Assembly (NCBI GenBank): GCA_905221615.1
Contig: CAJNDT010000946.1
Span: 184,001-248,000 of the forward strand
Reading direction: 5' to 3'
From: Symbiodinium sp. CCMP2592
Taxonomy: Eukaryota; Sar; Dinophyceae; Suessiales; Symbiodiniaceae
Length of the DNA: 64,000 nt
Part shown: piece after piece, positions 12,282-60,041 of the stretch
How the letters are laid out: every line of letters begins with the position of its first letter
How positions within the stretch are numbered: position 1 is the first letter of the stretch
Made by a program: the position numbers and the translations under genes
The notes under the pieces: model-generated
Databases searched by the model: none
Seen by the model: the letters and a program-made list of their open reading frames with translations, nothing else
Told to the model about the DNA's origin: nothing

Positions 12282-13217
12282 CTAATTATTGTTGCACAAA
12301 ACCCGGAAAGGTCGAAAAGGTTTCGACACCGGGTGATTCCAGAACGTTGCTGGTGCGATCAATCGTGGGATCCGTCCTTTCAGAAACTCAGCCCACAACA
12401 CCTGCAACTGCTCTGGAAGAAGCAAAATAGGGTTCAATGTCACGGCTGCGTTAATCGACTCACCCCTACAACGACACCACGCAGCTTTCCAGCTATCGTG
12501 CAGGGTAAACAGTGAGCCGGGTTGGGTCACGTGACTGGACTGGGAGCGCTGAATCGCAGCATCCCAGTCAAATGAAGAAACTATATTTTCAAACTCCACT
12601 CTTGTACACTTGCAGTCACTACACGTCTGCTTTGTAGAGGTGGTAGTTCTTGGAGTCAAGCTGTCCCGAAGAGCTTGGACAATGGCAGCAAACTCCACAT
12701 CTGACCATTGCCCAAGATCCTTGTCAGAATGAATTTCCACGACCTCGCTGATCAGGAACTCAATCACCTGCTGGAACTCCTCTGGGAACAATGGGTGCTT
12801 CTCAATGGCTCGTCGCACTCGGTCCTCCAAACTGCTCGGACTGGGGTCATCGAGGATCAAATCACAGAGGCCCAGGTGTGCCTCGTTCTGCCACACGCTC
12901 CACTGTGACTCCTCTGTTTCCTCCGCGATGGCCTTGCCGATGGAGGGAGCGGCCGGCGTGTAGTTCTCAATCTCGTTGTGTCGCCGCTTCTTACTTCCAT
13001 ATCCAGGGTGTAATACCTCTTTGGCACACCGGGTGCGTTTGAGAACATGTAGACACTTTGCAGATGCACGTAGGTGATCTTCCAGGCGTCCCGTCGTCCA
13101 GAAGTTTTTCTGGCATGCTCCACAAACAGTGCCATCAATGTAGCGTCTGTACTCAGCACACCGTCCATGCACCTTGAAAAGGTGAACGGCTAAGCCAGCT
13201 CGCTTGGCGAATGCCAA
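12282..13217 (-). CDS. Retrotransposon ORF2, C-terminal zinc-finger segment (frame 3)
   Basis: Final part of ORF2, read in a third frame and ending at TAG (12282-12284). It carries the His half of a first zinc finger (LAVHLFKVH), whose CRQC half lies in the preceding frame, and a complete second C2H-type finger (CGACQKNF then DHLRASAKC). The rest, about 240 residues, has an acidic middle (SLEDRVRRAIEKHPLFPEEF) and no known domain. The apparent start is not an ATG and is only a frame continuation. Zinc fingers after the reverse transcriptase in LINEs are thought to bind nucleic acid during target-primed insertion. Confidence 0.75.
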   Translation of the reverse strand: MAFAKRAGLAVHLFKVHGRCAEYRRYIDGTVCGACQKNFWTTGRLEDHLRASAKCLHVLKRTRCAKEVLHPGYGSKKRRHNEIENYTPAAPSIGKAIAEETEESQWSVWQNEAHLGLCDLILDDPSPSSLEDRVRRAIEKHPLFPEEFQQVIEFLISEVVEIHSDKDLGQWSDVEFAAIVQALRDSLTPRTTTSTKQTCSDCKCTRVEFENIVSSFDWDAAIQRSQSSHVTQPGSLFTLHDSWKAAWCRCRGESINAAVTLNPILLLPEQLQVLWAEFLKGRIPRLIAPATFWNHPVSKPFRPFRVLCNNN

Positions 13218-19431: not shown

Positions 19432-19640
19432 ACCAAACAGCCATTCAACCCACTCATCTTCCTTCAGGACGGACCGAAAAAGCCCGAAGGGGTAGATGTC
19501 TGTATCTTCCTGTTGCCAATGTAAGATGCGAACAGGACTCCAAAAGGGATTGGGAGTGGTCCAAGCCGTGGACACTCCAGCAGGAACAGACCGAAAAGGT
19601 CCTGCATATTCATATGTTCGGCCACAAAGGCCTTCGCAGG

Positions 19641-20780
19641 CTACTCCGCGTTTTCCTGCTCGGGACCATTGGCCAACTCTGCAATGCGGATGTTCTCGTC
19701 CTCGGAGTCGTCTTCCTCGATCTCGTGGATCTTCTGCATCGCTTCGGCACGTCTCTCCGCGAGCCTGCGGGATAATGGGGTGCCCGACTGTTTGGCAATC
19801 GTAGGTCGCCTGCCCATGTACTTGATCGGCGTACGGGTCGAGGACCTTGACTTGGACCTGGGCTCCCTGGTAGAAGGTGGCGAGGGCAACAGGTTGTTCG
19901 TGGAGGGAGACATCATGTACGGGTCCCTGTGGATCTGCTCGTTGCCAGCAGTCGCCGTATCCACCTCCATAGCTGCAGTTGCCCGTGTAGGAGCCAAGGA
20001 TGGCGCAGGTGGGGTCCGAGGTGCAGGGGCTGAGGCCCGCCTGTCGGGGGTCTTCGGGCACTCTTGCCGATGGCCATGCTCCTCGAGCACTGCGAGGATA
20101 GTCTGTCGGGCACCCTCCTTCGTCATCTCCTCCTTCTTGCACGCTTCGAAGAGGATCTCCGCCAAGTCGGGCTCCTTGTCTTTCTTGGGCGGCTGGAGTA
20201 GTTTGCGCAACTCGTCGATCGCCTCCATGTCCGAAGTTGGTACATCCTTGGTCACCTTCTTGGTCTGGAACATGGTATCCTTGAGCTCTGCAAGGGCCGC
20301 CTCCTTGTTCGCCAAGCTCTCCTCGATGACCTCTGCCATCCGCTCCTTCTTCTCCTTGTATCGGCGTCGTTCCGTCAGGTAGGACTCTTGGAGGTTCTGT
20401 TGGAAGAGCTCCCACTTTGCATCCAGGTTCTTGTCCTCCTCCTCTGCTCGGCGTATCTTCGTCACCGCCCTTCGCAGGCCATTGAGGACTTTCTGGACAC
20501 CAGTGACATAATAGCCAGCAGTGGGGTTCTCCTCCTCGTCCACCACCACAGTCTGCACTGCCCGGCCATCTTTGTCCTTCCGGGCGAGTGACATCTCCTC
20601 GAACGACGGGAAGGCCGAGGTCGAAGAAGGCGGTTGCTCCCACTCTTTCTCTGCTCTGGCCCCGCGAGGTTTCTGCTTGCCAGATCCCTTCGGCCATTGC
20701 CACCCTCCATACTGTGAGGAGGAGGATCTCCAGTCCGAGCCCGAGCCATAATCGTTGCCCCATTGGCTCTTGCGTCCCAT
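19641..20780 (-). CDS. Retrotransposon ORF1, coiled-coil protein
   Basis: 379 residues from ATG 20780 (MGRKSQWGNDYGSG) to TAG at 19641; the frame is open a further 60 codons upstream without an ATG. After a Gly/Ser/Trp-rich head comes a highly charged helical stretch (about residues 75-200, including RRRYKEKKERMAEVIEES) that looks like a coiled coil, then a Pro/Ser/Arg-rich linker (TREPRSKSRSSTRTP) and an acidic tail. No RRM or CCHC knuckle is seen. In LINEs such ORF1 proteins bind element RNA as multimers. ORF2's first ATG lies 210 nt downstream. Confidence 0.75.
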   Translation of the reverse strand: MGRKSQWGNDYGSGSDWRSSSSQYGGWQWPKGSGKQKPRGARAEKEWEQPPSSTSAFPSFEEMSLARKDKDGRAVQTVVVDEEENPTAGYYVTGVQKVLNGLRRAVTKIRRAEEEDKNLDAKWELFQQNLQESYLTERRRYKEKKERMAEVIEESLANKEAALAELKDTMFQTKKVTKDVPTSDMEAIDELRKLLQPPKKDKEPDLAEILFEACKKEEMTKEGARQTILAVLEEHGHRQECPKTPDRRASAPAPRTPPAPSLAPTRATAAMEVDTATAGNEQIHRDPYMMSPSTNNLLPSPPSTREPRSKSRSSTRTPIKYMGRRPTIAKQSGTPLSRRLAERRAEAMQKIHEIEEDDSEDENIRIAELANGPEQENAE

Positions 20781-21026
20781 GTGGTCGGCAAGCTTGTCCA
20801 CGTAGCGAGGCCAACTGTGGTGGGCCTCAAGCAGTGCCCTGTCACGCACAGGGAATGGCTTTCCTGAAGCCCTGGCTCGTGCGATGCGCTGTCTGGCTTT
20901 GGCCCTGGAAGCTCGCAGCCTCCTATGCCACGCCGGAGATCGCAGGTGGGCTATGGCGACGTGTCAATTGGACACTTGGGGTCCCTGGCAATGTTTCCCG
21001 CTGTCGGGAGACTCGATCCAAGACCC
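20781..21026 (-). other. 5' leader of the retrotransposon
   Basis: GC-rich sequence upstream of ORF1, ending at (TA)12. Part of it is open in the ORF1 frame (RARASGKPFPVRDRALLEAH), so a longer ORF1 in full-length copies is possible. Confidence 0.5.
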
Positions 21027-43977: not shown

Positions 43978-44187
43978 TTTACCCTAAACCCCTACACCCT
44001 AGACCCCCAAACCCGAAACCCTCAACCCAAAATCCTAAACCCTAAAGCATACAAATCCTAAACCCTAAACCCCTAAAACCCTAAGTCCTAAACCCTAGAC
44101 CCTAAAACCCTAAGTCCTAAAACCTAAAACCCTAAATCCTAAACCCTATAAACCCCAAAACCCTAAGTCCTAAACCCTAGACCCAAA
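43978..44187. repeat. CCCTAAA array, left arm of a convergent pair
   Basis: About 25 degenerate CCCTAAA units. The opposite motif TTTAGGG follows at 44308-44576 after a GC-rich core. Confidence 0.9.
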
Positions 44188-44249
44188 GGAGTTCAAAAAA
44201 AAAGAAGCCCCGAAATCGACCCCGACATGGCCTCAACGGTGCGGCGGCC

Positions 44250-44298
44250 ATGGCCTCAAAGCGCCAGGAGCGCTTGGACTTCGAGGCCGCCTTCCTTG
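44250..44298 (+). CDS. Candidate first coding exon, possibly of the J-domain gene
   Basis: In the GC-rich core between two opposed telomere-like arrays. ATG at 44250 follows GCGGCC; codes MASKRQERLDFEAAFL plus one base, then donor GTGTCC. It is the closest start upstream of the J-domain exons, but its phase (one base left over) does not match the phase-0 J-domain exon directly, so an unseen exon or a different acceptor is needed. Confidence 0.35.
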
Positions 44299-44307
44299 GT
44301 GTCCTTT

Positions 44308-44576
44308 TAGGGTTTGGGGTTTAGGGTTTAAGGTTTCAGGTTTTAGGGTTTTAGGGTTTGGGGTTTTAGGGTTTGGGGTTTAGGGTTCAGGGTAGGGTTT
44401 AGGGTTTAGGGTTTGAGGGTTTTAGGGGTAGGGTTCAGGGTATGGTTTAGGGTTTTCGGGCTTATAGGGTTTAGGGTTTTAGGGTTTTAGGGTTTGGGGT
44501 AGGGTTCAGGGTAGGGTTTAGGGTTTTAGGATTTCAGGGTTTCGGGTTTTAGGGGTTTAGGGTTTAGAGGTCAAAT
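44308..44576. repeat. TTTAGGG array, right arm of a convergent pair
   Basis: About 30 degenerate TTTAGGG units with GGTTTCAGG and GGTTTTAGG variants. Confidence 0.9.
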
Positions 44577-45482: not shown

Positions 45483-45536
45483 GCCAACGACTACTACGCC
45501 TACCTCAACCTCGATGTGCGGGCGAATGACGCGGAG
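45483..45536 (+). CDS. J-domain gene, exon A (helix I)
   Basis: First of five mini-exons that join in phase into a DnaJ J-domain, the part of Hsp40 co-chaperones that binds Hsp70 and stimulates its ATPase. Acceptor CATTGCGAG, donor GTGCAG. Codes ANDYYAYLNLDVRANDAE, the usual D-Y-Y-x-x-L start and helix I region. If the acceptor at 45441-45442 is used the exon gains NALNPKPPFLHCE. Intron A (837 bp) carries a half family E, an H and an F element. Upstream and downstream parts of the protein are not securely found, so the J-protein class is unknown. No zinc-finger CxxCxGxG motif is seen. Confidence 0.75.
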
Positions 45537-46012
45537 GTGCAGAGTTGTACTTGAGAGAAGACGCTTGGTTGCTTTTCCCAAACCTTCAACCCTACCTTCA
45601 CCACCAAGGGACAACCTCGTTCGGGAAAGAAGGGAAGTCACATTCAGGAACCCTCAAAAGGTTTTCGCGGGGTAAAGGTAAGCCCTAAACACTACACCCT
45701 CAACCCTAAGCCTTTCCTGTACCCCGAAGGGAATCGCAATAAAGGCGCTCAACAGCAGTTACGCCCTAAACCATGCAGAAACACATGCCCGAAAGGAAGC
45801 CCTGCAAAATCCTTCAAGCTTTATTACCCAGAGGGTCCATGTATACTACGTCATGAGATATGGCTTTGGGGATTTAGACGACCCACTTACGAAGGCTTAG
45901 GGTCGAATGCTCTGGGAGGGGGATTGAAGGGGGCTTTGTGGTGTATCGTGAGGCATGGGATAGTAAGAATAGGTCTCTTGTATTGGACTGCACCTTTAGA
46001 TGGACTCTAACC

Positions 46013-46094
46013 CGCAGGCTCAAAGTAGCCCAAGGGCCTTGTATAGTATGGTCTTTGGGCCCTTTAAGATATGAGTCCTTAGAGCCTAAGGGTA
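46013..46094. mobile_element. Palindromic element, family H, in intron A
   Basis: AGGCTCAAAGTAGCCCAAG at the left and TATGAGTCCTTAGAGCCTAA at the right, inner CATAGTATGGTCTTTGGGCC-type motif. Confidence 0.7.
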
Positions 46095-46194
46095 AGGGGC
46101 TGCAAGAACTGATTGTTCAAGCCCGGCCGGCCAGGTTTCGGGTTTAGGTGTGTGAGTTAAACTTGATGGATCGGTGTACTTTAGGATGACTACC

Positions 46195-46312
46195 ACGGTT
46201 GATGATGTTAGGGTTTAGGGTTTAGGGTCCTGAGTTACCGTAATGACCCTAGATCATCGGAAGTATGGTAGATTCGTTATTATGGGTATTGCAGGAATTA
46301 TATCATCAGCCG
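46195..46312. mobile_element. Family F element, rearranged, in intron A
   Basis: CGGTTGATGATG at the left and TTATATCATCAGCCGTA at the right; TTTAGGG copies have replaced part of the left arm. Confidence 0.6.
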
Positions 46313-46373
46313 TATTGTCAACTATTGTTATTCGTAGCATAGTACTAGCACTAGCAGCCGGCATGCGTGACAG

Positions 46374-46408
46374 GTCAAACGACACTTCCGACAGTTGGCC
46401 CTACAGCG
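46374..46408 (+). CDS. J-domain gene, exon B (helix II)
   Basis: Acceptor GCATGCGTGACAG. Codes VKRHFRQLALQ plus CG, the basic helix II that contacts Hsp70. The next exon supplies G to make Arg. The donor is GAGGGC, a GA donor; placing it three bases later would add one Arg. Intron B is 762 bp and contains a family B element, a nested family D element and a TTTAGGG tract. Confidence 0.75.
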
Positions 46409-46506
46409 GAGGGCTCAGCACGTGGGGATTTAGGAGTGTATGCATTCCAGGGCCAGAGGTTACCTGTACCCTCTAAACCCAATCTTGTTGGTGCTTTCAT
46501 TATATA

Positions 46507-46614
46507 TGGGAGTTTTCCGAAAGCAAGGGACCCTAATATAGTACCCAAACTAGTAGGATCCTCTTTACAAAGGACCCCAAAATAAAGTACCACCAAATTT
46601 TGGGACACTTCCGC
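46507..46614. mobile_element. Family B element in intron B
   Basis: TGGGAGTTTTCCGAAAGCAA at the left, decayed right end TTTTGGGACACTTCCGCG; TA precedes the left end. Confidence 0.75.
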
Positions 46615-46662
46615 GTATCCCTTCAAAGGTCGGTTATTTGGTTCGGGGAGGGGCTTAGGGCT

Positions 46663-46866
46663 ACTAGGAGGCTCATGGGTAGTTATATAGTAGAAGCCAG
46701 AAAGTTGGAATATCATTGTCCTCATGCCCTTCAGGTAAAGTATAAGGGATCCTAGCACTAAACCTCCTAAACCCATGTTCCAACTTTCTGGCTTCTACTA
46801 AAAATGGAGTTATAAGTAGGGTAGCGGACTTATAGCTCCACTTATGTCTACCCATGAACCTCCAAG
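46663..46866. mobile_element. Family D element interrupted by another palindrome
   Basis: ACTAGGAGGCTCATGGGTAG at the left, CTACCCATGAACCTCCAAGT at the right. The insert at 46690-46798 has near-perfect arms. Confidence 0.85.
46690..46798. mobile_element. Palindrome nested in family D
   Basis: GTAGAAGCCAGAAAGTTGGA at the left and its exact inverse at the right; TA flanks both ends. Including those TA steps, the inverted match is 23 of 23. Confidence 0.9.
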
Positions 46867-46897
46867 TAAGGCTTCAGGGCTGCAAGGTCGAGGTTTC

Positions 46898-47017
46898 AGA
46901 GTTTAGGGTTTGGGATTCAGGCCACGGTTTAGGGTTTAGGGGTTTAGGGGTTTAGGGTTTAGGGCTTAGGGTTTAGGGTTTAGGGGTTTAGGGTTTAGGG
47001 TTTAGGGTTTAGGGTTC
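46898..47017. repeat. TTTAGGG tract in intron B
   Basis: About 14 units, many perfect, the cleanest telomere-like run in this part. Confidence 0.9.
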
Positions 47018-47170
47018 TAGAGCAGGCTACGAAGAGCAAGCACAACAAGCAACCAAGGGCATTTGGAAAATGAGAACTAACCGTGGCAATATCCCGAAGC
47101 CAGCGGGGCGGAGGGGCATTCGGGCTTGGATCAGTGCCTTCTTTGTCTTCTGTCCATGCTGGCAGCATAG

Positions 47171-47206
47171 GTGGCATCCGGACAAGCACCAGGAAGGTGC
47201 GGCGAG
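47171..47206 (+). CDS. J-domain gene, exon C (HPD motif)
   Basis: Acceptor GGCAGCATAG. Its first G completes an Arg codon, then WHPDKHQEGAA plus AG. HPD is the invariant motif required for Hsp70 stimulation, so the domain looks functional. The donor is GACGGT, a second GA donor. The flanks AG|GAC (donor side) and AG|GAC (acceptor of exon D) are identical, leaving the exact cut ambiguous by up to three bases. Confidence 0.8.
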
Positions 47207-47645
47207 GACGGTGGTTTGCAGCATGTAGTCATGCCAAACATGCATCCTACTTGAAGGATGCCCGTGCTGGTCATGATGACAATAACCACAATAATTGACC
47301 TCTGCTATTGTAAGTGAGTATTATGGATAATATAATATAGTTGCATTTACAAGTTGGTTGTGTCTACTTGCCTGGCTTGTCAATGTGTCAACTTGTAATC
47401 CTCTATGATGGCCGGGAGCATCATGCATCATTCTGATTTGTTTTCTGTCGCAAGACCCTGTGCAGAAGTTGGGACAGCTGAGAGAAAACACTTAAATCCG
47501 TTTTCTGCTAGGAAAATGTGCTGGCCGTCCATCATAGACTCAAGATCCTTCAGTAAGCGCTGCCATTCTAGGGCCCAAAACAAACCCTAAACCCTAAACC
47601 GCTAAACCCTAAGCCCTAAACCCTAAACCAAAACAAATTCCACAG

Positions 47646-47682
47646 GACCCGCGCCACAGATATTTTCCAACAGATCAACAAG
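47646..47682 (+). CDS. J-domain gene, exon D (helix III)
   Basis: Acceptor AATTCCACAG. Completes AGG (Arg), then codes TRATDIFQQINK, helix III. The donor is GCAGTG, a GC donor. Intron D is 884 bp. Confidence 0.75.
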
Positions 47683-48232
47683 GCAGTGACTTTGGAAGTC
47701 AATGGTCCGTTTGTAAACAAGAATACAGGAGACCTGAACAATTATAGAATACAGCTTGGGGGGTATACTGTACTATACTAGAAGGGTGTGTTACCACTGA
47801 CTCTTTTGATCCAGATAGTATCGGGGTTTTGGAGGATGATGTAATAATTGAATTTTACAAGGTCTGTCTTGCAGATGGGTCCCCTGGCAGCTGTTGAGAA
47901 TGTTTGATGGATGGAGTCCGTCGAGGAAGGCGTCAGCGGGTTGCTCTCTTTCTTTTTGTGATTCTCTGTCTCTCTCTCTCTCTATTTCTCTCACGCTGAA
48001 CCTTTCAAGTTTAAGGTCTACGGCTACGGTTAAGGGTTTCACTACAGGTCATTACGGTGATGAGTTCCTACGTCTGGCGGATCGGGCCCTTTCGAAGGAT
48101 GTGGAGCAGTATCCGTCTTGTCTTTTTTTGTAAAGTGCAACTATTCCCAAAAGTATTTAGTTGTTCCCAGTGGGTTGCTGAACAGCCTTAACCCTAAATC
48201 CTAAACCCAGAAACTCCTGCACCCCAAGCCCT

Positions 48233-48325
48233 ACGATTGATGATATAAATCCTGCATTACTTTAAGGACCCTAAACTATGGGATTCCTTATTATGGGTAA
48301 TGCAGGGTTTTTATCATCAACCGTA
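48233..48325. mobile_element. Family F element in intron D
   Basis: ACGATTGATGATATAAATCC at the left, GTTTTTATCATCAACCGT at the right; interior inverted relative to 8171-8287. Confidence 0.85.
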
Positions 48326-48396
48326 GTACTCTAAACCCTGTAAACCTTAAACCCTAAGCCCCAGTACCCTAAACGCTAACCGTCCCTAACCCTATG

Positions 48397-48503
48397 GGTC
48401 CAAGTACCTAATGATCATATACTCTCTTGAATATTGAGCTACATGACTACTATCCTAAACCGAAGTACCTAAGGATTGGGTCCTTTGGACCCTTTGTGTA
48501 AAC
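48397..48503. mobile_element. Palindromic element in intron D
   Basis: TATGGGTCCAAGTACCTAAT at the left, ACCTAAGGATTGGGTCC at the right; related to the sequence at 49908-50075. Confidence 0.55.
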
Positions 48504-48566
48504 CCCTAAGTACCCCCTTGGGAGGGTGGTCCGTTTTCAGTATCCGCAAGCGCCCAGCGCTGCAAG

Positions 48567-48590
48567 GCCCATGAGGTGCTGTCCGACAGA
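48567..48590 (+). CDS. J-domain gene, exon E (helix III end and helix IV)
   Basis: Acceptor CAGCGCTGCAAG. Codes AHEVLSDR, the usual A-x-E-V-L-S-D motif. The likely donor is GAGCCG (GA). Exons A to E give about 62 residues covering the whole J-domain without a gap or frame conflict. The next exon is not certain; 49005-49042 (LTKRLNQHCQRQ) is a weak candidate. Confidence 0.7.
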
Positions 48591-48599
48591 GAGCCGGGG

Positions 48600-49751
48600 G
48601 CCTCTGGGGTTAAGGACTTTGTTTTATGGTTTAGGGCTTGCAGGTGTTAGGGTTTATAGGGCTGCTAGGGTTTGTAGGGTTTGTAGGGTCTGTAGGGTTT
48701 TGGGTTTAGGGTTTAGGGTAGGTATCGATTTGGGATAGCTTTTAATGAGAGCCCTAGTTGTAAGTAGTTTTGGGGGCTGAGGAAATCGACGCCTAGCGTG
48801 TCTGTCGGCTTTGAGTGCTTCCGGGGTTTTCGGGATTTAGGGCTTTAGGGGTTTAGGGTTCGGGCTTATCGGGTTTAAATCATGTTTTTAGGGTTTGGAT
48901 TGCGGGTAGGTTTGTTGTGTGCTTTAGGGCACGCTTCGGCACACTCATCCGTAAGCTCTCCCGCACGATTTGGCTTCGCTGCTTCGTTTTTTGATATGGC
49001 AGAGTTGACCAAGCGCCTGAACCAACACTGCCAGCGACAGTAAGCGCCTTTTGTCACGAACCTCGAACCTGCTGCAAAGTCGGCATCATGATAGCAATAG
49101 ACATAAACGACACAGGACATCAATACCTGATTCGCATGATGAGTTACATTCAAGAGGCATCGGCTTGGCATGGGTGATTGCTTTGCTGCCTGCAGCTGCT
49201 CTGAATTCATGCATGCAACTAAGGCTCCGATCTCGATACGATGCCGTATGGTATCAAAAGTCAGCTGCTCAGCCATTGCTCCTTTGACGTTCCTAAATGC
49301 GCAACCAAATTAAATGCCTCTGTAAAGAGTAGGGTCCAGGGACGCTCTGAGTGGACCCCGTGCTCGGGGTAGCCACGTAGGGTTTCGGGTTTCGAGGTTT
49401 AGGGGTGCAGAGCTTATGGCCTAGAGGTTAGAGTTTCTGGTCCCTGTTTCACCACATGCCTCTGGATTTAACATGTGAAAAAACCGCGACTCTTGTTCAC
49501 ATCGGGGTTTAAGGTGATTTAACGCCCTAAACCCTAAACGGCTGTGAGTTGCCACGACCACAGCAGAACAAGAAGCCCACACTCAGGGTTCAGGACTTAG
49601 GGTTTATGGTTCAGGGGTTGGGTTTTAGGGTTCAGGGCTGAGGGTTTAGGGTTTGGGCTTTAGAGTGTATAATTTCCAAAACTACTGAGTACGCTGCTGC
49701 CGGGAAATACCCAAGCTGAAATGCAGCCGCTTTCTGTGCTGAGCAACTTAG
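48600..49751. other. Probable intron, mostly non-coding
   Basis: TTTAGGG motifs at 48625-48720 and 48835-48890. One weak exon candidate (TTGACCAAGCGCCTGAACC, 49005-49042). Nothing else supported. Confidence 0.35.
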
Positions 49752-49842
49752 TAGCCGAGTGGATACACTTTACATTTTGGGGGGTAGTATTACCCACTAT
49801 ACAACTAAACGTGTACACTTATTGGGGGTTTATAATCTCAGC
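49752..49842. mobile_element. Palindromic element, family K
   Basis: GCCGAGTGGATACACTTTAC at the left and AACGTGTACAC...AATCTCAGC at the right; matches 22021-22115. Confidence 0.7.
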
Positions 49843-49907
49843 ACGTAAGGCAAAGAGGACCGAGACCAATTTGTCGGTCTAAGACTGTGCTCCTTGGAAC
49901 TTCCCCA

Positions 49908-50075
49908 AGGGTCCAAAGGACCCAATAATCAGGTACTTGGGTTTAGCTCTATAAGGGGCTACTATACGGGATACTATAAGGGTTCTATATAGTATAGGGG
50001 CCTAATAATTAGGAACTTGGGTTTAGGATAGTAGTTATGTAGGTTAATGTTTGGGAGAGTACCCGGACCCTTAGG
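49908..50075. mobile_element. Larger palindromic element
   Basis: AAGGGTCCAAAGGACCCAAT at the left and TACCCGGACCCTTAG at the right, with two inner copies of AGGTACTTGGGTTTAG/AGGAACTTGGGTTTAG in direct order. Confidence 0.5.
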
Positions 50076-50146
50076 GCTTTGCTTTGGAGGCGCTGGCACT
50101 GGGTTCGCGAGAGTTCGAGACGACAATCGACTGGCTTGACATCTGG

Positions 50147-50202
50147 TTTCCAGGTCAACTCGGTTTAGGGTTTAGGGTTTAGGGTTTTCCAGGTCAACTC
50201 GG
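50147..50202. repeat. TTTAGGG tract flanked by a 17-bp direct duplication
   Basis: TTTCCAGGTCAACTCGG occurs at 50147-50163 and again at 50186-50202. Between them is 22 bp of pure (TTTAGGG)3 plus T. The duplicated segment contains a TTTCCAG|GT splice-acceptor-like motif. Confidence 0.95.
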
Positions 50203-50290
50203 ACAGGTGCATCACTGTCGAAACTATACGAACCAAATCCTCATCTCCGCCAAACAGACGCTCAAATACAGGGTTTCCGAAGACCTCCAG

Positions 50291-50504
50291 CTCATATTAC
50301 CTGCCCTGGGAGATCCCAAGATTCATCAAGCTCGTCTGCGATGGGTTCACACCATCGAGAGGCGAGCCTCTTGATATCCAAATAGTGCAAGTCGTCAACG
50401 AGAGCGGGGCCACGGATGTGCTGTTACTGGACATGCCAGCAGTCAGTTCCGTGCCGATGGCCCAGAAAACACCTACCCGCATCCTCGAAGGGCGCGGGAA
50501 TTGA
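50291..50504 (+). CDS. Terminal-exon candidate (71 aa), unknown
   Basis: After AAGACCTCCAG one frame is open to TGA (50502-50504): SYYLPWEIPRFIKLVCDGFT, then a middle with DIQIVQVVNESGATDVLLLD and a basic end. Composition is that of a folded protein. A second frame (LILPALGDPKIHQARLRWVH) is also open over the first third, so the frame is not certain. Confidence 0.4.
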
Positions 50505-51576
50505 TTGCACTTAGAGGGGTAAAGTGGAGCATGAAGAGGATTTGGTCTCGCATCAACACCTTCTGCCACCCCGAGCTTTGAGCTCACAAGGGCTGGGGCC
50601 CCGCACTCTACACCCTGCGATCAAGAAAACCTACACTCATACATGCGACATGCTAGAAACGGACCAAAACCGGTAGACCCTAAACCCTAAACCCAGACCC
50701 TAAGAGCCCTGATACGTGTAAGACCTACGCAGCACTTATGGACAGACTTCGAGCTCGCTCTCTGCAAACCCTTGTGGGTTTAGGGGTAATGGATAAGGAG
50801 ATAGGGACAACGGCTCAGGAGAAACTATGCAGAACGGTCGATATGTTATGGGGCTTAGGGATAAGGGATGAGGAAGGATACAGATAGCGGTTTAGGGGAA
50901 GCTATGGTGTTCGATGTGCCCCTGAGATTCCAGCTATGTAGAGTAGGTTTACTCGTTACTGGTATTCTATGGTGTATCCAGGGCAGAAGAGAACTTGTTA
51001 CTGGGCTTGGGCTCCCAGTAGCAATAGGATAACTATGAATGCATGCCGAGTGATCAGGTTAAGAGTAGAGTCAGTGCATCTTTGCACATATCGTCAAAGA
51101 ATGTATCTGCAGTTAAAGATCCAGATCTGTACATGCAGTGTGGGACCGATCGTCAACTTCCTTCCCGAAACCACAAATGCAAAGGAGCAACATCGGGATT
51201 TCGATGTTTGCTGCACACATTTTTCACACATATACCAACCTTCCTACATACCCCTACCTGTGTACGGAGGGGCGGCAGGCAGGAAGGGAGGGAGGTGTCT
51301 GCCTACGTGCTGATATGCTGATCCGCTCATGTAGGTATGTGTTGATTAATGCCAGTGGCCGTATTCTGAGGCAACCCAGGCATCCAGGTCCTCTGAATTA
51401 GTAGGTTCATATGTTATCTACCCCACTAACCTATTGAATAGGTAACGCTAAACCCGAGCCGCCACAACCCCTAAACCCTAAACCCCTAAACTCCAAACCC
51501 CATAGACCCCTAAACCCCTGAACCCAGACCCTAAACCCAAACCGCCTAAACTCCAAACCCCTAAACCCCTTTTTAG

Positions 51577-51663
51577 GTAGCCGAAGCCCCAGAGCAGCCC
51601 AGGCATCAAGGGCGCCGTCGGGCGGTGCCCGAGTGGGCCCGGAAGGCGGATAGCTGGCCTTGA
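51577..51663 (+). CDS. Terminal-exon candidate (28 aa and stop)
   Basis: Acceptor CCTTTTTAG; codes VAEAPEQPRHQGRRRAVPEW then ARKADSWP and TGA. Arg/Pro-rich C-terminal tail. GC-rich island between CCCTAAA motifs and a (TA)n tract. Confidence 0.45.
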   Translation, partial: VAEAPEQPRHQGRRRAVPEWARKADSWP

Positions 51664-51696
51664 GGGCTTCGAAACTTTGGGTTGTTATTGTGGCAT

Positions 51697-51697
51697 G

Positions 51698-51739
<42 letters not shown>

Positions 51740-51970
51740 TACATATGTATATATATATATATATGTATGTATATATTGGAATTTCGATTACTTTTATTAT
51801 TGCTATTATGATTATGATTATCGCTAATACTTGTTAGTTAGTATCAGTATTCGTATTCGTGTTAGTATGAGTATTTGTATTGGCATTAGTATTCTATACC
51901 ATACATGATATACCACATGCACAACATGTGTATGTATGTATATCTATATCTATATCTATATCTATATATG
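51697..51970. repeat. (TA)n, ATT-rich and TATATC repeats
   Basis: (TA)11 and two further (TA)n tracts to 51770, then TATTAG-like repeats and (TATATC)5 at 51938-51967. Confidence 0.9.
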
Positions 51971-52731
51971 CAAAAACATTTAACGGGCTTGAAGAGGGTT
52001 TAGAGGCTCACAGTGGCTGGGGTGCTTGAGCGTTTGGTCTTCTGCCGTTGGAGGTTAGAGGGTTTTAAGAAAACGGGTCGATTTCCAAGGTATCGAGCTA
52101 GATAATGGCACTATCACGATGCAAGTAGCAGTCTTTGGCCCTTAATGCCTGAAACAAGCCCTAAACCCAAATCCCTAAACCCCGAACCCTAAACCCCTAA
52201 AGAGGAGGTCTTAGAAGTGCTGCGACATGGACTGCAGTTCACGAGGAGACTTTTTGTTGTCGCTGCCGTTATCTGTTTGATCTGTCTGTAGGGTTTAGGG
52301 ATTTAGGACTTAGGGCTGATTCATGACCATGAGTATTCTGAACCAGCAGACTGAAACCATTGAAGCAATACGGAAAGCTCCGAGGGGAATGTCGCCATGT
52401 TACACCGGACCGTGGGAGTTTGAGAAATGAGCAACCTTCGTATTGAACCGACCCTCGTTCAGTTTAAGGTACCCGCGAACAACACAACCTGCATATGAGT
52501 CTGATTGTGGAACCCTGCGAAGACCCGCTGTCTACCCTGACGATACTTCTAAGAGCCCAATAAACACATTATCAAAAACGATCGAAACCCTGTATACTAT
52601 AAACCCTTGACCGTAAACTCGGTAAACCCTTGACCTGAAAACCTACGTACCCTACATACCCGAAACCCCACAACTCCAACTGCACTATATACCGTAAGCC
52701 TTCAGCCCGGTATACCTTGAGCCCCAAATAG

Positions 52732-52800
52732 GTGGCGGCTGGCCGCAGTGGAAGCGTCGAGGTCCGTACCGACTCTGGCAGTACGGAAGGCCGCGGATCA
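52732..52800 (+). CDS. Exon 1 of a two-exon group (23 aa)
   Basis: Acceptor CCCCAAATAG, donor GTAAGA; 69 nt, phase 0 at both ends. Codes VAAGRSGSVEVRTDSGSTEG then RGS. It joins in frame to 53133-53183, which ends in a stop. No family recognised. Confidence 0.55.
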
Positions 52801-53132
52801 GTAAGAGAGCGAGAGCGAGCGGCGTTCGGAAGGATTCATACATGCATGTCTACATCAACCTGCTTGCGCCGAATGGACCATGTCTCACAAGGCCAACAAC
52901 TGCCAGACCCCCAAAGCCCTGAAACCCCAAAGCGCAGCAAGAGCCAGTTAGCAAGGACATGGAAGAGACATGTCGTCATCATTGTTGGCTTTGCAGCAAG
53001 AGACCCTAAACCCTGAAACCTAAATCCTAAACTCCAAAGCCTGGAGCCTTAAGGGTTTGGGGGCTTAGGGTTTGGGCTTTACGGTTTTGGGGTTTAGGGA
53101 AATCCCCTGAATTCCGAGAAGTTTTGTGCCAG

Positions 53133-53183
53133 GATTTTGGCCTCAAGGCCTTCGAGCAGGCACCGTGGATCGTGGCGGCGTAG
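53133..53183 (+). CDS. Terminal exon of a two-exon group (16 aa and stop)
   Basis: Acceptor GTTTTGTGCCAG; codes DFGLKAFEQAPWIVAA then TAG, phase 0. The intron from 52801 is 332 bp with GT-AG ends. Confidence 0.55.
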   Translation, partial: DFGLKAFEQAPWIVAA

Positions 53184-53249
53184 CCTTGCACTGAGCATCG
53201 GCACTTCTGGGGTCGCCAAAGACACCAGGGAAACAACAAGGCAACTGTA

Positions 53250-54900
53250 CATGGCTTCGCTTACATACAGATGTACTATACAGATGTGTATATATACATT
53301 TATTATGTAAGATATGTATATATACATTGTATAATATATAGATAGAATCATGTACAAGCATAGAGAGAGACATATACTATGTACATCTGTTGTATAGGTG
53401 CACGAACAATACTGGACAACGAGATACTGTACTTACCCACAAGCAGTTCAAGCATGTGCTTATATGTATGTGTGCATAGTTATGCACCTACATAATCAGC
53501 GAGAGTCTCGTGAATTGTCGAGTGTAGTGTGTGTATACACGTCTAGATATATAGATGGAGGTTGGTACATAGGAACGTCACAAGTCACTGCACAGGTGTC
53601 CGTTGTATGTAGTGTCTGGGGTTTGTCTAGGGATCGAGGCTTTCAATATGCCCCACCCAAAAAGGCTGATTGCACCCGAAAACCCGATGCCCCTTACGGC
53701 CAGACCAACTTTCCGTACACAGGTTCGAAGCGTGATGAGGCTTCAAGCCCCCAAGCCATACATGCTCGGTGTGTGAATATAGACATGTCAGGGTTTCGAC
53801 ATTTAGGCTTTGTGCCGCAAAATCTCAAATCCTACAAGCCGGGGCGATGCAGCAGCATTTCGGCCCCGAACTCAAAACCCACAACCTTGAACGGGCAAGC
53901 ACCCGGACCAGCAGCGCATACCCAAACCTTTTGCCCCTAAACTCCTCTTGTTTGGAAAGCCAGACAGTCCTTCAGTGCATTATTCTCGATCAGGTTAGAT
54001 CGTGTTCTGTGAGGTTACACTATACTACGCTTTTAACTACATTGTTACAGCGTTTTTTTCATAAGAGTGTATAGTGTTTTTTTGCTGCGGTACTTAGGGC
54101 TCAGAACCTTGGGACTTTTAGTTTCGGGAGTTGTGGGTGTGGGGCTGCTCATGTAGAACCTTGGAAAGTCTGACCCCTTGAATCCAAATTAGAAGTTCAA
54201 CAGCGCCGGAGGGGTAGAGTCGTAAGCAGCTGGAAGCACAGTTACTCTCCCGGGGCGTATTCGGCCCTGGCTAGAGCCTTATGATCCCGCAGAATGACGT
54301 CTGAGGCTTACCCGCAGAGGCAGCGGCAGCATCCGGCGTTCCGTGGTCCAACGATATAGACTGAACGATGGGTAATTACTGCTATTCCCTCACAATCCGA
54401 GGCCTGTTTGCTAATCAACTGTTTGGACATGTTACATTTTGGCTTTGTCCTTTCCGACGTACTTGCCAATTCCTCACTCGCAATTTCACTCACTCACTTA
54501 CGTACCTACTCACAAACTTACTTACTTTCGCACACTTACTCGTGTTGCTGGTCACCAAGCACATGAACCACTGGCTTCCGGCATGTCCTCCTTCTGAGGG
54601 GCCCTTGGTTACCTGAGGCTCATACGCCTCATACGCGTTCCTTGCACCAGGTTGAGGTTTACCCTAAGGTCCCTAACATTTTAGGGAACCTCATCAGAAT
54701 GTAGGATTTCTGAGACCCCAAAGAGTCCCAAGGGCTCTCCCTAGGAGATTCCGGACCCTCTTGTAAAGAGATACCTGGACCCTTCGGGTTGAGGGGCCCG
54801 AAACCCGTAAGTGGGAGAGCCCATGTTGCCAGTTCGGAGATTTGGCACTCCAGGTCCTTGCTGCAACCTGCGTCAATACCTTATACAAGTGCCTCACCCA
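53250..54900. other. Mostly non-coding stretch
   Basis: TATA/TGTA-rich DNA at 53260-53400. A 180-codon plus frame (53398-53940) has no domain and is near chance length. A possible exon fragment (RQRQHPAFRGPT) follows GCAG near 54315. Confidence 0.35.
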
Positions 54901-55001
54901 AAGGCTCCATGTACCTTTATAGTAGATACTTAAGCCCCAAAGTAGTCCCTATATAGGTACTTTGAGGCCTAAGTATCTACTATAAGGGTACATGGAGCCT
55001 T
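54901..55001. mobile_element. MITE-like element, family A
   Basis: AAGGCTCCATGTACCTTTAT at the left and its near-exact inverse ATAAGGGTACATGGAGCCTT at the right. Least diverged A copy; the interior CTATATAGGTACTTTGAGGC is typical. Confidence 0.95.
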
Positions 55002-55789
55002 AGGGTCAAGCATCTTTGACAGATGATCGTAGAATGCTTCCAGTATGGATAGTGCCGGTTTTCTGCCCAGCAACAGCTTTAATATTCGTACTACGCTGAA
55101 CGAAAAGGGCAAGAGCTCACAGCAAGCTCCAATACGGAGAGCCCTACTAAACCGCCCTGACGCCCTAAAGTCCTGAAGCCAAAAAGCCCTAAAACCCTCA
55201 AGTCGTCTAAAGTCCTGAAGCCCCAAACCCCTAAAGTCCCAAATCCCGAAAGCTCTAAATTCCTAGAGTTTGAACTTAACCTTACACCGTAGTTTCGAAA
55301 CCCTAAAAGCCCATTTCCCCAAAGCCTCAGACACAGGGTCCCTCTTACAGCATGTTCTTTATTCGGGCTTATGCTAGGGCCCTACAAAAAGACGGGGGAT
55401 TCTTGGACCTGTCTCCTCTTCCTTGAGTCAAAAACACCTAAGTTCATGGTTTTGGGGTTCAGGATTCAGCGTTTAGGGCTCGGGGTGCAGGATTCAGGGT
55501 TCGGGCAGCGGTTTTTTTGGGGTAGTATAGCCCCTATATAATCCCTATATATATAACCAAAAAGCTTTAGTTCCCCATGATACCCGACAAGCAGATAACT
55601 TAAGTTACCATAATAGGGGATCTATACGGGTTCCTTTAAGGGATCTATAAGGGCCCCCTGAAGGCATCTATAAGAGTTCCTTTAAAGGCCATGGAACCAA
55701 CGGGTGCAGGCCTGCCAGCTTCAGCGATGGATCTCGCTTCTGGGAGGGGCCGGCAACCCGGTCTTTCCGAGAAGCTTTCTACCCTTGGG

Positions 55790-56030
55790 CTCTAAGGGTT
55801 CATATGGGTGGTTGTCAATATTAGGGTCCCGTTTGGGGTACCCTAAATATTAGGTGCCGTAGTATTTCAGGGACCCAAAGAGGGCATAAGTTTGAGAGCC
55901 GCCCATATCCTAAGGCTTTTGGGCCCAAAGACCATACTAAATACGGCCTTTGACCATACTAAATACGGCCTTTGACCATACTAAATACGGCCTTTGACCA
56001 TACTAAATACGGCCTTTGGGCTACTCTGAG
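55790..56030. mobile_element. Family H element with a nested family C and a 22-bp tandem array
   Basis: CTCTAAGGGTTCAT continues after the insert as ATCCTAAGGCTTTTGGGCCC. Inside the remainder, GACCATACTAAATACGGCCT plus TT is repeated four times exactly (55930-56017), against a single copy in related elements. Confidence 0.85.
55805..55905. mobile_element. Family C element nested in family H
   Basis: TGGGTGGTTGTCAATATTAG at the left and GAGAGCCGCCCA at the right; TA on both sides (55803-55804, 55906-55907). The uninterrupted H copy at 57589 reads CTCATATTTT at this point. Confidence 0.9.
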
Positions 56031-56123
56031 CCTGAGGGTAAGGTTGAGGCCAGCTAAGGCATCGGGTTTAGAAGGTCAGTCTCCCACAGCAACTCCCAGG
56101 AGGTTTAGAGTTTAGGGTTTCCC

Positions 56124-56209
56124 TACGGGTCTATGTGCCCATGTAGTATACCTAGGCCTTAAAGTACCTATATAAGAGTCCCAGTCTAGATTAATCCACG
56201 GAGCCTTAG
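56124..56209. mobile_element. Family A element, diverged
   Basis: ACGGGTCTATGTGCCCATGT at the left; right end reduced to CACGGAGCCTTAG. Confidence 0.5.
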
Positions 56210-56274
56210 GGCTTTATGGCACAGGAACCAGGAAGTAGACACTTCAGGGTTTGGGAGTCCCGGATACTCCGCCC

Positions 56275-56375
56275 ATCTTAGCCCCAAATAACCCTGCCCT
56301 TTGAAGGGCTTACGTAAGGAACGCATAAAAAAGGAACCCCCAAAAAAGGTGGATTTTAATTACAGGGTCCGGGTG
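56275..56375. mobile_element. Family L element, diverged
   Basis: AGCCCCAAATAACCCTGCCC at the left and AGGTGGATTTTAATTACAGG at the right. Confidence 0.45.
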
Positions 56376-56895
56376 AAGCCTGTCGAGTTCGGCCACTGAG
56401 CTGTAAAACACTGAACCTCGACGAACCCAGCAGGCCGCGTTTAGGGTTTAGGATTTATACAGGGTTTAGGGTTTAGGGCTGCGCTTTGGTTTGAGAATGT
56501 TGGCTTGGGGGTTGGGGCTCACAGTGGGTTGTATATGGCTGTTAGAGTAGCATTTAGGGCTTAGCATGTTGGGGGATGATGAGTTCCGGGATATCGTGCT
56601 GCATTGCTGCTGTCAGCAGTCGTACAGTTTCGGAGTGAGGGCTCAATTTATAGGGTTTAGGGTTTAGAGACATTGCTGTTTGTAAGACTCTTGCGCGGCG
56701 AATGGTTCGTGGGGGCCCATGAAAACACAAGCCCTGAATCGAAAACGGCATACATGGCTAGGGTGTAGGTTTTATGAGGGTTTAAATGCTCCGGGACCAG
56801 ATGTTGCGACAGAGAAGGAATGACGCTAGTCGTGTGCAAATCGTGTCCCTATTCGCTGCCCGACGCCAATACTACTGGACCGGGGCCTATACCCG

Positions 56896-56980
56896 AAGGG
56901 ACCCTGTACCCAAACAGTTTATACACTGGCCATTGAAGTAGTCCCTGTTTAAGTACATGGGGGTACATGGACCCTTAGGG
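56896..56980. mobile_element. Family A element, short
   Basis: AGGGACCCTGTACCCAAACA at the left and GGGGTACATGGACCCTTAGG at the right. Confidence 0.65.
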
Positions 56981-57065
56981 ATACAGCCCATTTTACACCC
57001 TCAACACCAAAGGCACTCCAATGAGGCGCGGTGCCGAAGCGTCCATGCTGTTGAATATAACCCCT

Positions 57066-57147
57066 AAGGCTCAAAATAGCCCAAAAGCCTTACATAGTAT
57101 GGTCTTTGGGCCCAAAAGCCTGAAGATATGAGTCCTTAGAGCCAAAG
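57066..57147. mobile_element. Family H element
   Basis: AAGGCTCAAAATAGCCCAAA at the left and GATATGAGTCCTTAGAGCC at the right, inner CATAGTATGGTCTTTGGGCC. Confidence 0.75.
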
Positions 57148-57505
57148 GGTAAGTCAGTTTGAAGAAAGGAAAGGTAAAGAACGCCTTTTAAGTGAGCCCC
57201 TTTATGCTTGTATCCGAATCCCCAGCCCAATGCTGAAGCTTATGAGGCCCTGTTTAAAACCCTACGACACGCCTCAAAGCTAAACCCTCATCCAAATCCT
57301 TATAACGCAGTTGATACGTCCATGGCATGCCCCAATGCTCCTAAGTACGTATATGGGCGTTACTTCCCCAAATCAGAACCTTAACTCCTAATATAGAAAC
57401 CTTGAAATAAATTCTACTGTGTATATGTATATATATATATATATATATATGTACAGAGTATAGGTATTTAGGACCCTTTGTGAGGGTTTCGTTTCTTGAG
57501 AGCAG

Positions 57506-57543
57506 GCCACGTCCTGCTGCCTCGTGCGCACGGCCGGGGCCAG
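57506..57543 (+). CDS. Exon candidate, unknown
   Basis: Acceptor TTGAGAGCAG, donor GTCGGA. Codes ATSCCLVRTAGA plus two bases. Short but GC-rich with both splice signals. Confidence 0.35.
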
Positions 57544-57562
57544 GTCGGACCATTCCTACCCT

Positions 57563-57759
57563 AAGGGCCTATGTGTTCATGCAGTAAAACCCTTGGCTCT
57601 AAGGACTCATATTTTGACGCTTTTGGGCCCAAAGACCATACTATGTAAGGCTTTCGGGCTATTTTGAGTCTTAGAGAAAACCAATGAAGTAGCCCCCCCA
57701 ACAGGGTACTTTAGCCCCTAGAAAGATCTATATGGCTACATGGGTACATGGACCCTTAG
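57563..57759. mobile_element. Family A element interrupted by family H
   Basis: CTAAGGGCCTATGTGTTCAT at the left, ATGGGTACATGGACCCTTAG at the right. The H insert at 57589-57667 (inverse orientation to 57066) accounts for the excess length. Confidence 0.75.
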
Positions 57760-58407
57760 GGCCTCAGGGTTAGGGAGAATCTGAAGCGCCACCTAGGTGT
57801 TAGGGGTGTTTCTTTGGTTTACCAAGGGCTCTATGGGGGTTCTGCAAAGGCTTTATGAAGGCTCCACAATAGTTCTATGAGGGTTTAGAAAGGGTTATAT
57901 ACAAGGTACTTACAGGATTATATTTTAGGCCCCGAAAGATCGTAGTTTGGTTTTAGGAGTTCTAGTCGTTGCTCGTTTTCTTTGACTCAGCGCTTGCCAT
58001 TCTGTTTGGATGTGGGGATTTTGGAAGATTCGGGGAATTCTGCAAGGATTGAGGGGCACAGGTTTCTGAACTGATTAGGCTCTCCACCTGCTCTCCACCA
58101 TATCCTAAGTACCCTCTGTTGGGGGCCCATAGCTTCCCTATTTCATGGTACAAGATGCCACTTGGAGCTTGCCAAGGCGCTTTCGTGTCTGGTGTTGTGT
58201 TGGACTCTGGACAACCACACTATAGCGTGCCCAAACAACCGATTCTAATCATTAAGGCCCAACACCCTACTCTAATTACTAAGGACCCTATAATATTAAA
58301 ACCCCCAATGATACCAAATATAGTAACGCTTAGAGGACCCTTTTTAAGAACCCTTTAAAGGAACCCTACTCTAATCATTAAGGCCCCTCCTCTTTCTGTG
58401 GGACGAG

Positions 58408-58437
58408 CTTCTCACCTCCTGGGCTCGCCTTCGGCAG
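58408..58437 (+). CDS. Exon candidate, unknown
   Basis: After GTGGGACGAG, codes LLTSWARLRQ and is followed by GCACAG (GC donor); the frame stays open for a further 20 codons (AQKGRRSPPKGFQTAEA). Basic, helical. Confidence 0.35.
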
Positions 58438-58606
58438 GCACAGAAAGGCCGCCGCAGTCCGCCAAAAGGCTTCCAGACAGCAGAAGCTTGTCCTAGGCCC
58501 TTGTTATGTAGGGTTAGGGTCGAGGGCTTGTGGCGTAGGCTTTGGTATTTAAGGTGGCGAAATATTAAAGTCCAGAGTTGACAAGGTTTTTCTAAGGATA
58601 GAGTCC

Positions 58607-58738
58607 ACTTGGAGAGGCAGGGGACTGAGTATATAAGTAGGCTATAAGTAGAGTTAAAGTTATAAGTACCCTAAACGGAGTTACCCCAATTATGTCCCTA
58701 CTTATCAACGACTTACTAAGTCCCCTGCCCCTCCAAGC
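58607..58738. mobile_element. MITE-like element, family D
   Basis: ACTTGGAGAGGCAGGGGACT at the left, AAGTCCCCTGCCCCTCCAAG at the right; one arm has TATAAGTAGGC repeated. Confidence 0.9.
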
Positions 58739-59154
58739 AGGGCTTGATTTCAGGTTTCAGGTGGTTAGAGGTCCGGAGCATCTTAGGGTTTAGGGACATA
58801 GCTTGAGGAGTTATGCAAAGTCATTCGCGTATTTGACAATCAAGGTACAGAGGACTAACTATTGTGGTTCCATTGCGGGAGCTCGCTGACGCACAGGGAG
58901 ACCTATTCACCCGCCTGCTTTGGCATCCGTTGGTAAAGACAAGATTGCCAGAAACTTGTTGAGTATAGCTCCTCTAGACATATACAGTAGTAGGGTTTAT
59001 ATAGGGCTTAGGGTTTGTAGGGTTTAGGACCTATCGGCCCCCCTGTCCAAACGAAGATGGCAATGGGGGAATCCTGGGTTCGGAGTTGATGGCAGCTCAA
59101 GATGATAATGCACCCTTGAACATAGGTTCATGAATATGGCATGGACAATGGGAT

Positions 59155-59559
59155 TTGGTTGTTGGCCAAGGTTCGGAGATTCCGGTTCTGACGGTAGGTT
59201 TGTCGGTGCAGAAACACTGCCACCTCATCGTGGAAGCCTCAAAAAGCCAAACACAGCTGGAGCATGCTATCGCTGCAGTCAGCCTGGGCAAGGTGCAAGG
59301 CGGTGCCTCTGGCAACATTGTCCTGCTGTTCGACTCGAACCTGTGGGGGGAGGCCATTACCTGCCCCCACGTGAGGCGACCTCCGGTCGCCAAGGCTGCA
59401 GTGCAGAAGATTTGGAAAGCCGTACAGGCGGCCCGACTCCGGCCAGATCAGGGCGGACTCATGGCTCCGCACGACGTGTTGTGCATCGTGGACGGTGGAC
59501 GATCGGATGAGTCACTCCGGCAGCACTTCGGCATGCTTATGTTCCGCGATCGGTGGTAG
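59155..59559 (+). CDS. ORF of 134 aa, unknown, GC-rich
   Basis: A continuous GC-rich frame ending at TAG (59557-59559). The listed first codon is a GTT/TTG-type position, so the true beginning may be a splice site or further left. Contains TVGLSVQKHCHLIVEASKSQ, an inner GASGNIVLLFDSNLWGEAI and an end HDVLCIVDGGRSDESLRQHF. Strand and helix alternation looks like an alpha/beta domain; no catalytic motif recognised. It is longer than any other exon here, so it may be a retrocopy or a last exon. Confidence 0.5.
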   Translation: MVVGQGSEIPVLTVGLSVQKHCHLIVEASKSQTQLEHAIAAVSLGKVQGGASGNIVLLFDSNLWGEAITCPHVRRPPVAKAAVQKIWKAVQAARLRPDQGGLMAPHDVLCIVDGGRSDESLRQHFGMLMFRDRW

Positions 59560-60041
59560 TGGTTTGAGATTAAAGCGGATTGCGGAAAAGTCGAGAAGCA
59601 TCAATCCAACAGTCCTTGTTCCTGAAATGGAAACAACAACTGTTCAAGCTTAGGATCTATGATCTACAGTCGAATTAACTATGGTCCGGGGTTCAGGGAT
59701 TGTCGGGTGTGCTCCAGTGAGTTCTGTGATGTAACTCCTTTTAGCAATTTTGCGTCCGGCTTTGCGATATATTGGACATGACCCACGCAGCAAGGCAGGG
59801 GCTGAAAATTAGAATGTAAACACGAGTCTTGTGAGGAGTACCGAAGCTTCTACGTTTCTCCACCCGGTCGTATTCGTTCAAGGTTTCCACCCTCGTCTGC
59901 CCAGCCGCCCCGGGCGGACGACTCCGACAGCAAGGAAGGCCGTCCGTGCTTGCTAATCCTTCCTAGTTGTTGAAGCACCCACGTCTCATGTGTGCACAGA
60001 CTTTGTTGTGATTTGGTCAGTGATTCGGTTTTCGTCTTAGC

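What the first reader, a model, noticed from the sequence alone, without database searches (positions are those of the whole stretch)
45483..48590. A complete J-domain assembled from five mini-exons with mixed GT, GA and GC donors
Five segments of 24-54 nt, spread over 3.1 kb, join without a frame conflict into a textbook DnaJ domain: DYYAYL start, basic helix II, HPDKH, helix III, AHEVLSD. Phases require the donors GTGCAG, GAGGGC, GACGGT and GCAGTG, all paired with AG acceptors. No frame of usual length covers it, so standard gene finders would miss it. GA and GC donors are known from dinoflagellates; using three donor types within a 62-residue domain is striking.
Basis: partly seen in the sequence, partly recalled or inferred. 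Interest (0 to 1): 0.85.

Follow-up and report, generated by a model that had tools for sequence, protein, structure and literature searches.

The report
Dinoflagellate J-domain gene in tiny exons
This is a real but ordinary co-chaperone (J-domain) gene of a dinoflagellate, cut into very short exons whose mixed splice signals are normal for this genome; it mainly shows how such genes escape standard gene finders.

Summary
The five segments are at the stated coordinates and join in frame into a DnaJ domain (PF00226 58.5 bits, E 7e-16). This is not chance: a splice-aware profile search gives 45.1 bits here, against at most 21.8 in 200 dinucleotide shuffles. Two corrections follow. Junction 2 fits better with exon 2 ending at 46405 and a GC donor (GCGGAG) than with GAGGGC (66.1 against 58.5 bits). 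A sixth exon at 49224, joined to exon 5 ending at 48592 by another GC donor, supplies helix IV; the whole domain then scores 74.5 bits. The donors become GT, GC, GA, GC, GC. The genome (1.098 Gb) holds 429 exact dinoflagellate spliced-leader copies, control 0. Mixed donors are normal in it: 28 introns in 16 other split J domains use GC 16, GA 9, GT 3, so three types in five introns has probability about 0.33. Elsewhere in the genome the donor's second base tends to equal that of the downstream exon (13 of 22, expected 7.7, p 0.008), as here (4 of 5). This fits the published 4-bp target-site duplication that supplies the 5' splice site in Symbiodinium introners. No transcript was available.

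The parts
44250..44300 (+). candidate first coding exon, MASKRQERLDFEAAFLG, start codon in a GCCATGG context; inferred, donor position uncertain
   Evidence: frame 44202-44303 has coding score 18.7 bits; a paralogue on contig C664 aligns weakly through residues 8-17 of it
45483..45536 (+). exon 1 of the J domain (helix I), donor GAG|GTGCAG
47171..47206 (+). exon 3 (HPDKH loop), donor GCGAG|GACGGT; end uncertain by a few bases
47646..47682 (+). exon 4 (helix III), donor AACAAG|GCAGTG
48567..48592 (+). exon 5 (AHEVLSDR), donor GAGA|GCCGGG
49224..49245 (+). exon 6 (helix IV, ELRSRYDA); start supported, end uncertain, the open frame runs to 49284
53133..53183 (+). candidate terminal exon DFGLKAFEQAPWIVAA-stop; low confidence
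46002..46098 (+). dispersed repeat inside intron 1
   Evidence: 39 other places listed at 81-88% identity, a lower bound
46208..46317 (+). second dispersed repeat inside intron 1
   Evidence: 5 other places listed at 80-86% identity, a lower bound

Best explanation
A protein-coding gene of a dinoflagellate nuclear genome encodes a J-domain co-chaperone. The domain is spread over six exons (the first five 54, 32, 36, 37 and 26 nt), separated by five spliceosomal introns of 439-884 nt. The spliceosome of this organism accepts GT, GC and GA as donor with AG acceptors, usually followed by G. The donor type varies because the donor dinucleotide tends to be a copy of the first two bases of the downstream exon, as left by a 4-bp AGGN target-site duplication when the intron was inserted. 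The mature protein would contact an Hsp70 through HPD. Shown here: the exons, the domain, the donor usage in this genome, and the base match. Inferred: splicing itself, the intron origin, and the chaperone function (general knowledge of J domains, recalled).
For: DnaJ match 74.5 bits over the whole profile. Splice-aware search 45.1 bits against at most 21.8 in 200 shuffles. Helix IV continuation ranks first of 3710 choices, 2 of 200 shuffles reach it. 429 exact spliced-leader copies, control 0. Other split J domains in the genome have the same kind of introns (28 introns, GC 16, GA 9, GT 3). Donor base 2 equals exon base 2 in 4 of 5 introns here, which suggested the test, and in 13 of 22 robust introns elsewhere against 7.7 expected, p 0.0076. 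Published: Symbiodinium microadriaticum introners have 4-bp duplications and take the 5' splice site from them (PMC9860276, passages seen); GC or GA donors make up 25-74% of introns in Symbiodiniaceae (PMC11453091, passages seen).
Against: No transcript was seen. No close intronless copy in the genome confirms the junctions (best 53%). In the window alone the base match is not significant (4 of 5, p 0.10), and intron 2 does not match. The position test covered 16 positions without correction. No terminal inverted repeats were found in the introns. Intron 1 as a whole is single-copy; only its inner repeats recur (introns 2-5 were not searched). At a higher intron cost the script keeps only exons 1-3 (38.4 bits). 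Beyond helix IV the guessed protein has no Pfam match above cut-off.
Confidence: 0.88

Rival explanations
1. The locus is a decayed gene: exons of an old J-domain gene persist but are no longer spliced or translated.
For: Exons are very short, no downstream domain was recognised, and the region is rich in repeats.
Against: No stop or frame conflict in the 185 nt of exons 1-5, codon use like that of intact J frames in the genome (28.2 bits in sum, though exon 2 gives only 0.7), and AG acceptors with usable donors at every boundary.
Confidence: 0.08
2. The domain is real, but intron 3 uses a GT donor a few bases further on, adding six residues to the loop after HPD, so no GA donor is used.
For: An in-frame GT donor exists and the longer domain still scores 69.2 bits.
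Against: The GA versions score higher (74.5 and 75.7), the version ending at 47206 aligns without gap to PDB 6rzy, and it has an AGGAC repeat across the boundary. GC donors at introns 2, 4 and 5 would still be needed.
Confidence: 0.1
3. Chance assembly of a J-like peptide from short frames.
For: The exons are only 26-54 nt and donors are loosely defined.
Against: 0 of 200 shuffles come near (max 21.8 against 45.1 bits), and no tile of the window away from the locus exceeds 19.2.
Confidence: 0.01

Closest known systems
DnaJ/Hsp40 J-domain family (PF00226); best solved match 6rzy, 'Heat shock protein 40, type II'
   Same: Full profile coverage, HPD motif, ungapped to 6rzy over 60 residues.
   Different: No other DnaJ-type domain was found for the guessed downstream exons, so the subclass is unknown.
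GT/GC/GA-AG introns of Symbiodiniaceae (PMC5177918, PMC7789003, PMC6123633)
   Same: Same three donors, AG acceptors; introns of 439-884 nt against published means of 505-893.
   Different: Exons 1-5 are shorter (26-54 nt) than the published means of about 102-256 nt.
Introners of Symbiodinium microadriaticum (PMC9860276)
   Same: Donor base tends to repeat the downstream exon base, as a 4-bp AGGN duplication would give.
   Different: No terminal inverted repeats; intron 1 not multi-copy as a whole. Origin from introners is therefore not established.

Membership tests
J-domain (PF00226) | Match above the curated cut-off over the whole profile | tested here: met
   74.5 bits, cut-off 27.8, positions 1-63 of 63
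J-domain (PF00226) | HPD motif between helices II and III | tested here: met
   WHPDKH read from the start of exon 3
J-domain (PF00226) | Stimulates an Hsp70 ATPase | not testable with these tools
   needs protein
Dinoflagellate GT/GC/GA-AG introns | Organism is a dinoflagellate | tested here: met
   429 exact spliced-leader matches, pattern read backwards 0
Dinoflagellate GT/GC/GA-AG introns | Donors GT, GC or GA with AG acceptors | tested here: met
   all five introns as read here; the whole domain was not recovered with GT only
Dinoflagellate GT/GC/GA-AG introns | Junctions present in transcripts | not testable with these tools
   no reads held
Introner-derived introns | Short direct repeat across the boundaries (target-site duplication) | tested here: inconclusive
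   repeats of 4, 1, 5, 6 and 2 nt in introns 1-5; 8 of 120 pairings reach or exceed the mean run
Introner-derived introns | Terminal inverted repeats | tested here: not met
   scores of 5 window introns not above cross-pairs (mean 8.8 against 10.9)
Introner-derived introns | Many near-identical full-length copies in the genome | tested here: not met
   intron 1 only; introns 2-5 not searched

The most novel reading that the evidence does not exclude
In this dinoflagellate genome the choice among GT, GC and GA donors is mostly not a splicing code but the fossil of the insertion target: the donor's second base is the fourth base of a duplicated AGGN site, visible even in conserved-domain introns that no longer look like introners. 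The spliceosome would then have relaxed its second-base requirement because introns kept arriving at AGGN sites.
Probability: 0.35. Interest if true: 0.45.

Novelty: new member of a known kind. Interest (0 to 1): 0.22.

Why it matters
It is a worked example of a gene that a splice model needs GC and GA donors, and exons under 40 nt, to recover. The locus-specific match of donor and downstream exon base gives a simple way to test, with any junction set, whether donor diversity in dinoflagellates is inherited from insertion sites.

Tried and rejected
Close intronless paralogue to confirm junctions: none found; the best matches in the genome were 53% (62-residue query) and 41% over 86 residues (99-residue query). 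Assignment to a DNAJC11-like class (an idea from recall) was to be tested with PF11875 in the own genome; the tool was busy every time, so it stays untested. tblastn of 21 J-protein frames of the genome against the window from 30 kb on and 20 kb beyond gave nothing convincing downstream (best E 0.05, on the minus strand). A coding-score chain for the rest of the gene gave no Pfam match above cut-off and is not relied on. Terminal inverted repeats: none (5 window introns and the 20 of 28 others that are long enough). Rfam at gathering threshold and tRNA scans of the window: nothing. An 8-nt extra exon proposed by the first run of the script (intron cost 7, gap 9) was dropped as an effect of its costs; the control used intron cost 10 and gap 7, intron cost 9 and gap 7.

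Full report
Observation. The five segments exist at the stated places and join without a stop into ANDYYAYL...AHEVLSDR. The joined peptide matches DnaJ (PF00226) at 58.5 bits, E 7e-16, cut-off 27.8, and 40 distinct PDB sequences at E up to 0.001, most of them named as DnaJ or Hsp40 proteins.

Chance. I wrote a splice-aware profile search (profile from 19 intact J domains of the same genome and 5 PDB J domains; the window's own domain was left out). With donors GT, GC, GA and acceptor AG it scores 45.1 bits at this place and returns the same exon order. In 200 dinucleotide-preserving shuffles of the 6.5-kb region the mean is 15.6 and the maximum 21.8. Of 38 tiles of the window on both strands, the two that overlap the locus score 45.1 and 34.7, and the next best is 19.2. 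With GT donors only the score falls to 30.0 and covers only exons 1 and 2; with GT and GC it is 42.4, up to HPDKH. With intron cost 12 instead of 10 only exons 1-3 are kept (38.4). With any donor allowed only junction 3 moves, to 47200 with a GG donor (49.9) (all).

Corrections. Ending exon 2 at 46405, donor GCGGAG, is in frame and gives LALQWHPDKH: PF00226 rises to 66.1 bits, TIGR02349 from 48.6 to 54.8, and each of the 40 PDB sequences scores higher. The free search also chose 46405. The two donors are three bases apart, so both could be used. As a control, a helix IV profile made from 13 tails of J frames of the genome (about half of them visibly misaligned, which weakens it) ranks this continuation first of 3710 donor-acceptor choices, 7.6 against 0.9 bits for the next; in 200 shuffles of 48641-60000 the best mean is 3.5 and 2 reach 7.6. 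I keep 47206 for its AG|G context; both 47206 and 47203 use GA donors.

Organism. The assembly has 1,098,105,373 bases in 5,383 contigs. The 21-base dinoflagellate spliced-leader sequence, taken from PMC8045281 (passages seen), occurs 429 times exactly, against 0 for the pattern read backwards. I did not identify the species.

Is the donor mixture unusual? I analysed 20 of 37 planned loci, chosen by me from the partial J-domain matches among the 124 matches (the other 17 were not given). In these 20 loci, 16 had introns in the best chain with G[TCA] donors and 4 did not; 28 introns in all: GC 16, GA 9, GT 3. 21 of the 28 junctions stay the same when any donor is allowed: GC 14, GA 5, GT 2. Ten loci have two or more introns, and six of these mix two donor types (L044, L047, L050, L054, L056, L059; L054 is doubtful); with robust junctions only it is 3 of 8 (L047, L050, L056). 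None has three types. With the frequencies of 29 introns (one added from L033), three types in five introns has probability 0.33. Published tables agree: S. microadriaticum lists GC/GT/GA as predominant donors (PMC5177918, passages seen); a table passage in PMC7789003 gives 73.95% GC or GA donors in the column with mean intron 505 bp, which I take to be S. microadriaticum because the heading was not shown; a review gives 25-74% for Symbiodiniaceae (PMC11453091, passages seen). What stands out is the fragmentation: four introns within the 57 profile positions, against at most three in the 16 other loci. These were picked from matches that a six-frame search could see, so more broken domains would have been missed.

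Why donors vary. In introns 1, 3, 4 and 5 of this gene the first two intron bases equal the first two bases of the next exon (GT/GT, GA/GA, GC/GC, GC/GC); intron 2 does not match (GC/GT). The shared stretches across the boundary are 4, 1, 5, 6 and 2 nt; 8 of the 120 possible pairings reach or exceed that mean, and the base match alone has p 0.10 in the window. This pattern suggested the test, so the independent figure is the one from elsewhere: in the 21 robust introns of other loci position +2 matches in 0.62 against 0.35 expected (p 0.0056, one of 16 positions tested, uncorrected), and +3 in 0.10 against 0.25. In the full set of 28, positions -8 and +7 also have p of about 0.03, as expected of chance among 16. 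With L033 added, +2 is 13 of 22 against 7.7, p 0.0076; with the 7 less certain junctions 16 of 29 against 9.8, p 0.008; pooled with the window 17 of 27 against 9.4, p 0.001. This is what a 4-bp AGGN target-site duplication would leave. PMC9860276 reports 4-bp duplications and co-option of the 5' splice site from them in S. microadriaticum introners (passages seen). Against a recent introner origin here: no terminal inverted repeats (5 window introns, and 20 of 28 others long enough to test), and intron 1 as a whole occurs once, with only two inner stretches repeated.

The rest of the gene. A likely first coding exon lies at 44250-44300 (coding score of the frame 18.7 bits); a paralogue on contig C664 aligns weakly through it. 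Downstream exons are not resolved: a coding-score chain passes through a plausible terminal exon at 53133-53183 but has no Pfam support, and chains running further score slightly higher (49.3 against 46.7). The J-protein subclass is therefore unknown.

Literature. Searches of the held library for dinoflagellate splice donors, introners, J domains and microexons (15 of 74, 12 of 19, 10 of 32 and 2 of 2 papers listed) showed in their listings no paper on this gene or on a J domain with this exon structure; most subscription papers are not held. Of the papers cited I saw passages found by search terms, not whole texts. Roy et al. 2023 on dinoflagellate introners was seen only as cited in PMC11453091 and PMC10666404.

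Verdict. A real J-domain gene with introns ordinary for this genome, except for unusually short exons. The mixture of donors is expected. The base match between donor and downstream exon is the part worth testing further.

Noticed in passing
window 12285-20814, minus strand: Long open frames of 2007, 556 and 311 aa; the first has an RNase H match just below cut-off (25.1 of 25.8 bits), the second a weak reverse-transcriptase match (11.9 bits): retroelement-like.
   Followed up: partly
window, many places, for example 43981-44567 and 46926-47016: Runs of CCCTAAA/TTTAGGG telomere-like repeats inside introns and spacers; 132 exact TTTAGGG and 126 CCCTAAA in the window.
   Followed up: no
window 46002-46098 and 46208-46317: Dispersed repeats of about 100 bp inside intron 1 with copies at 80-88% across the genome; the first folds somewhat better than shuffles (z -2.0, 10 of 200 shuffles as good).
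   Followed up: partly
window 59152-59553: Open stretch of 134 aa with a strong coding score (51 bits) and no Pfam match.
   Followed up: partly
L041-L060, intron position +3: The base match between donor and downstream exon falls below expectation at +3 (0.10 against 0.25 in 21 introns), right after the excess at +2.
   Followed up: no
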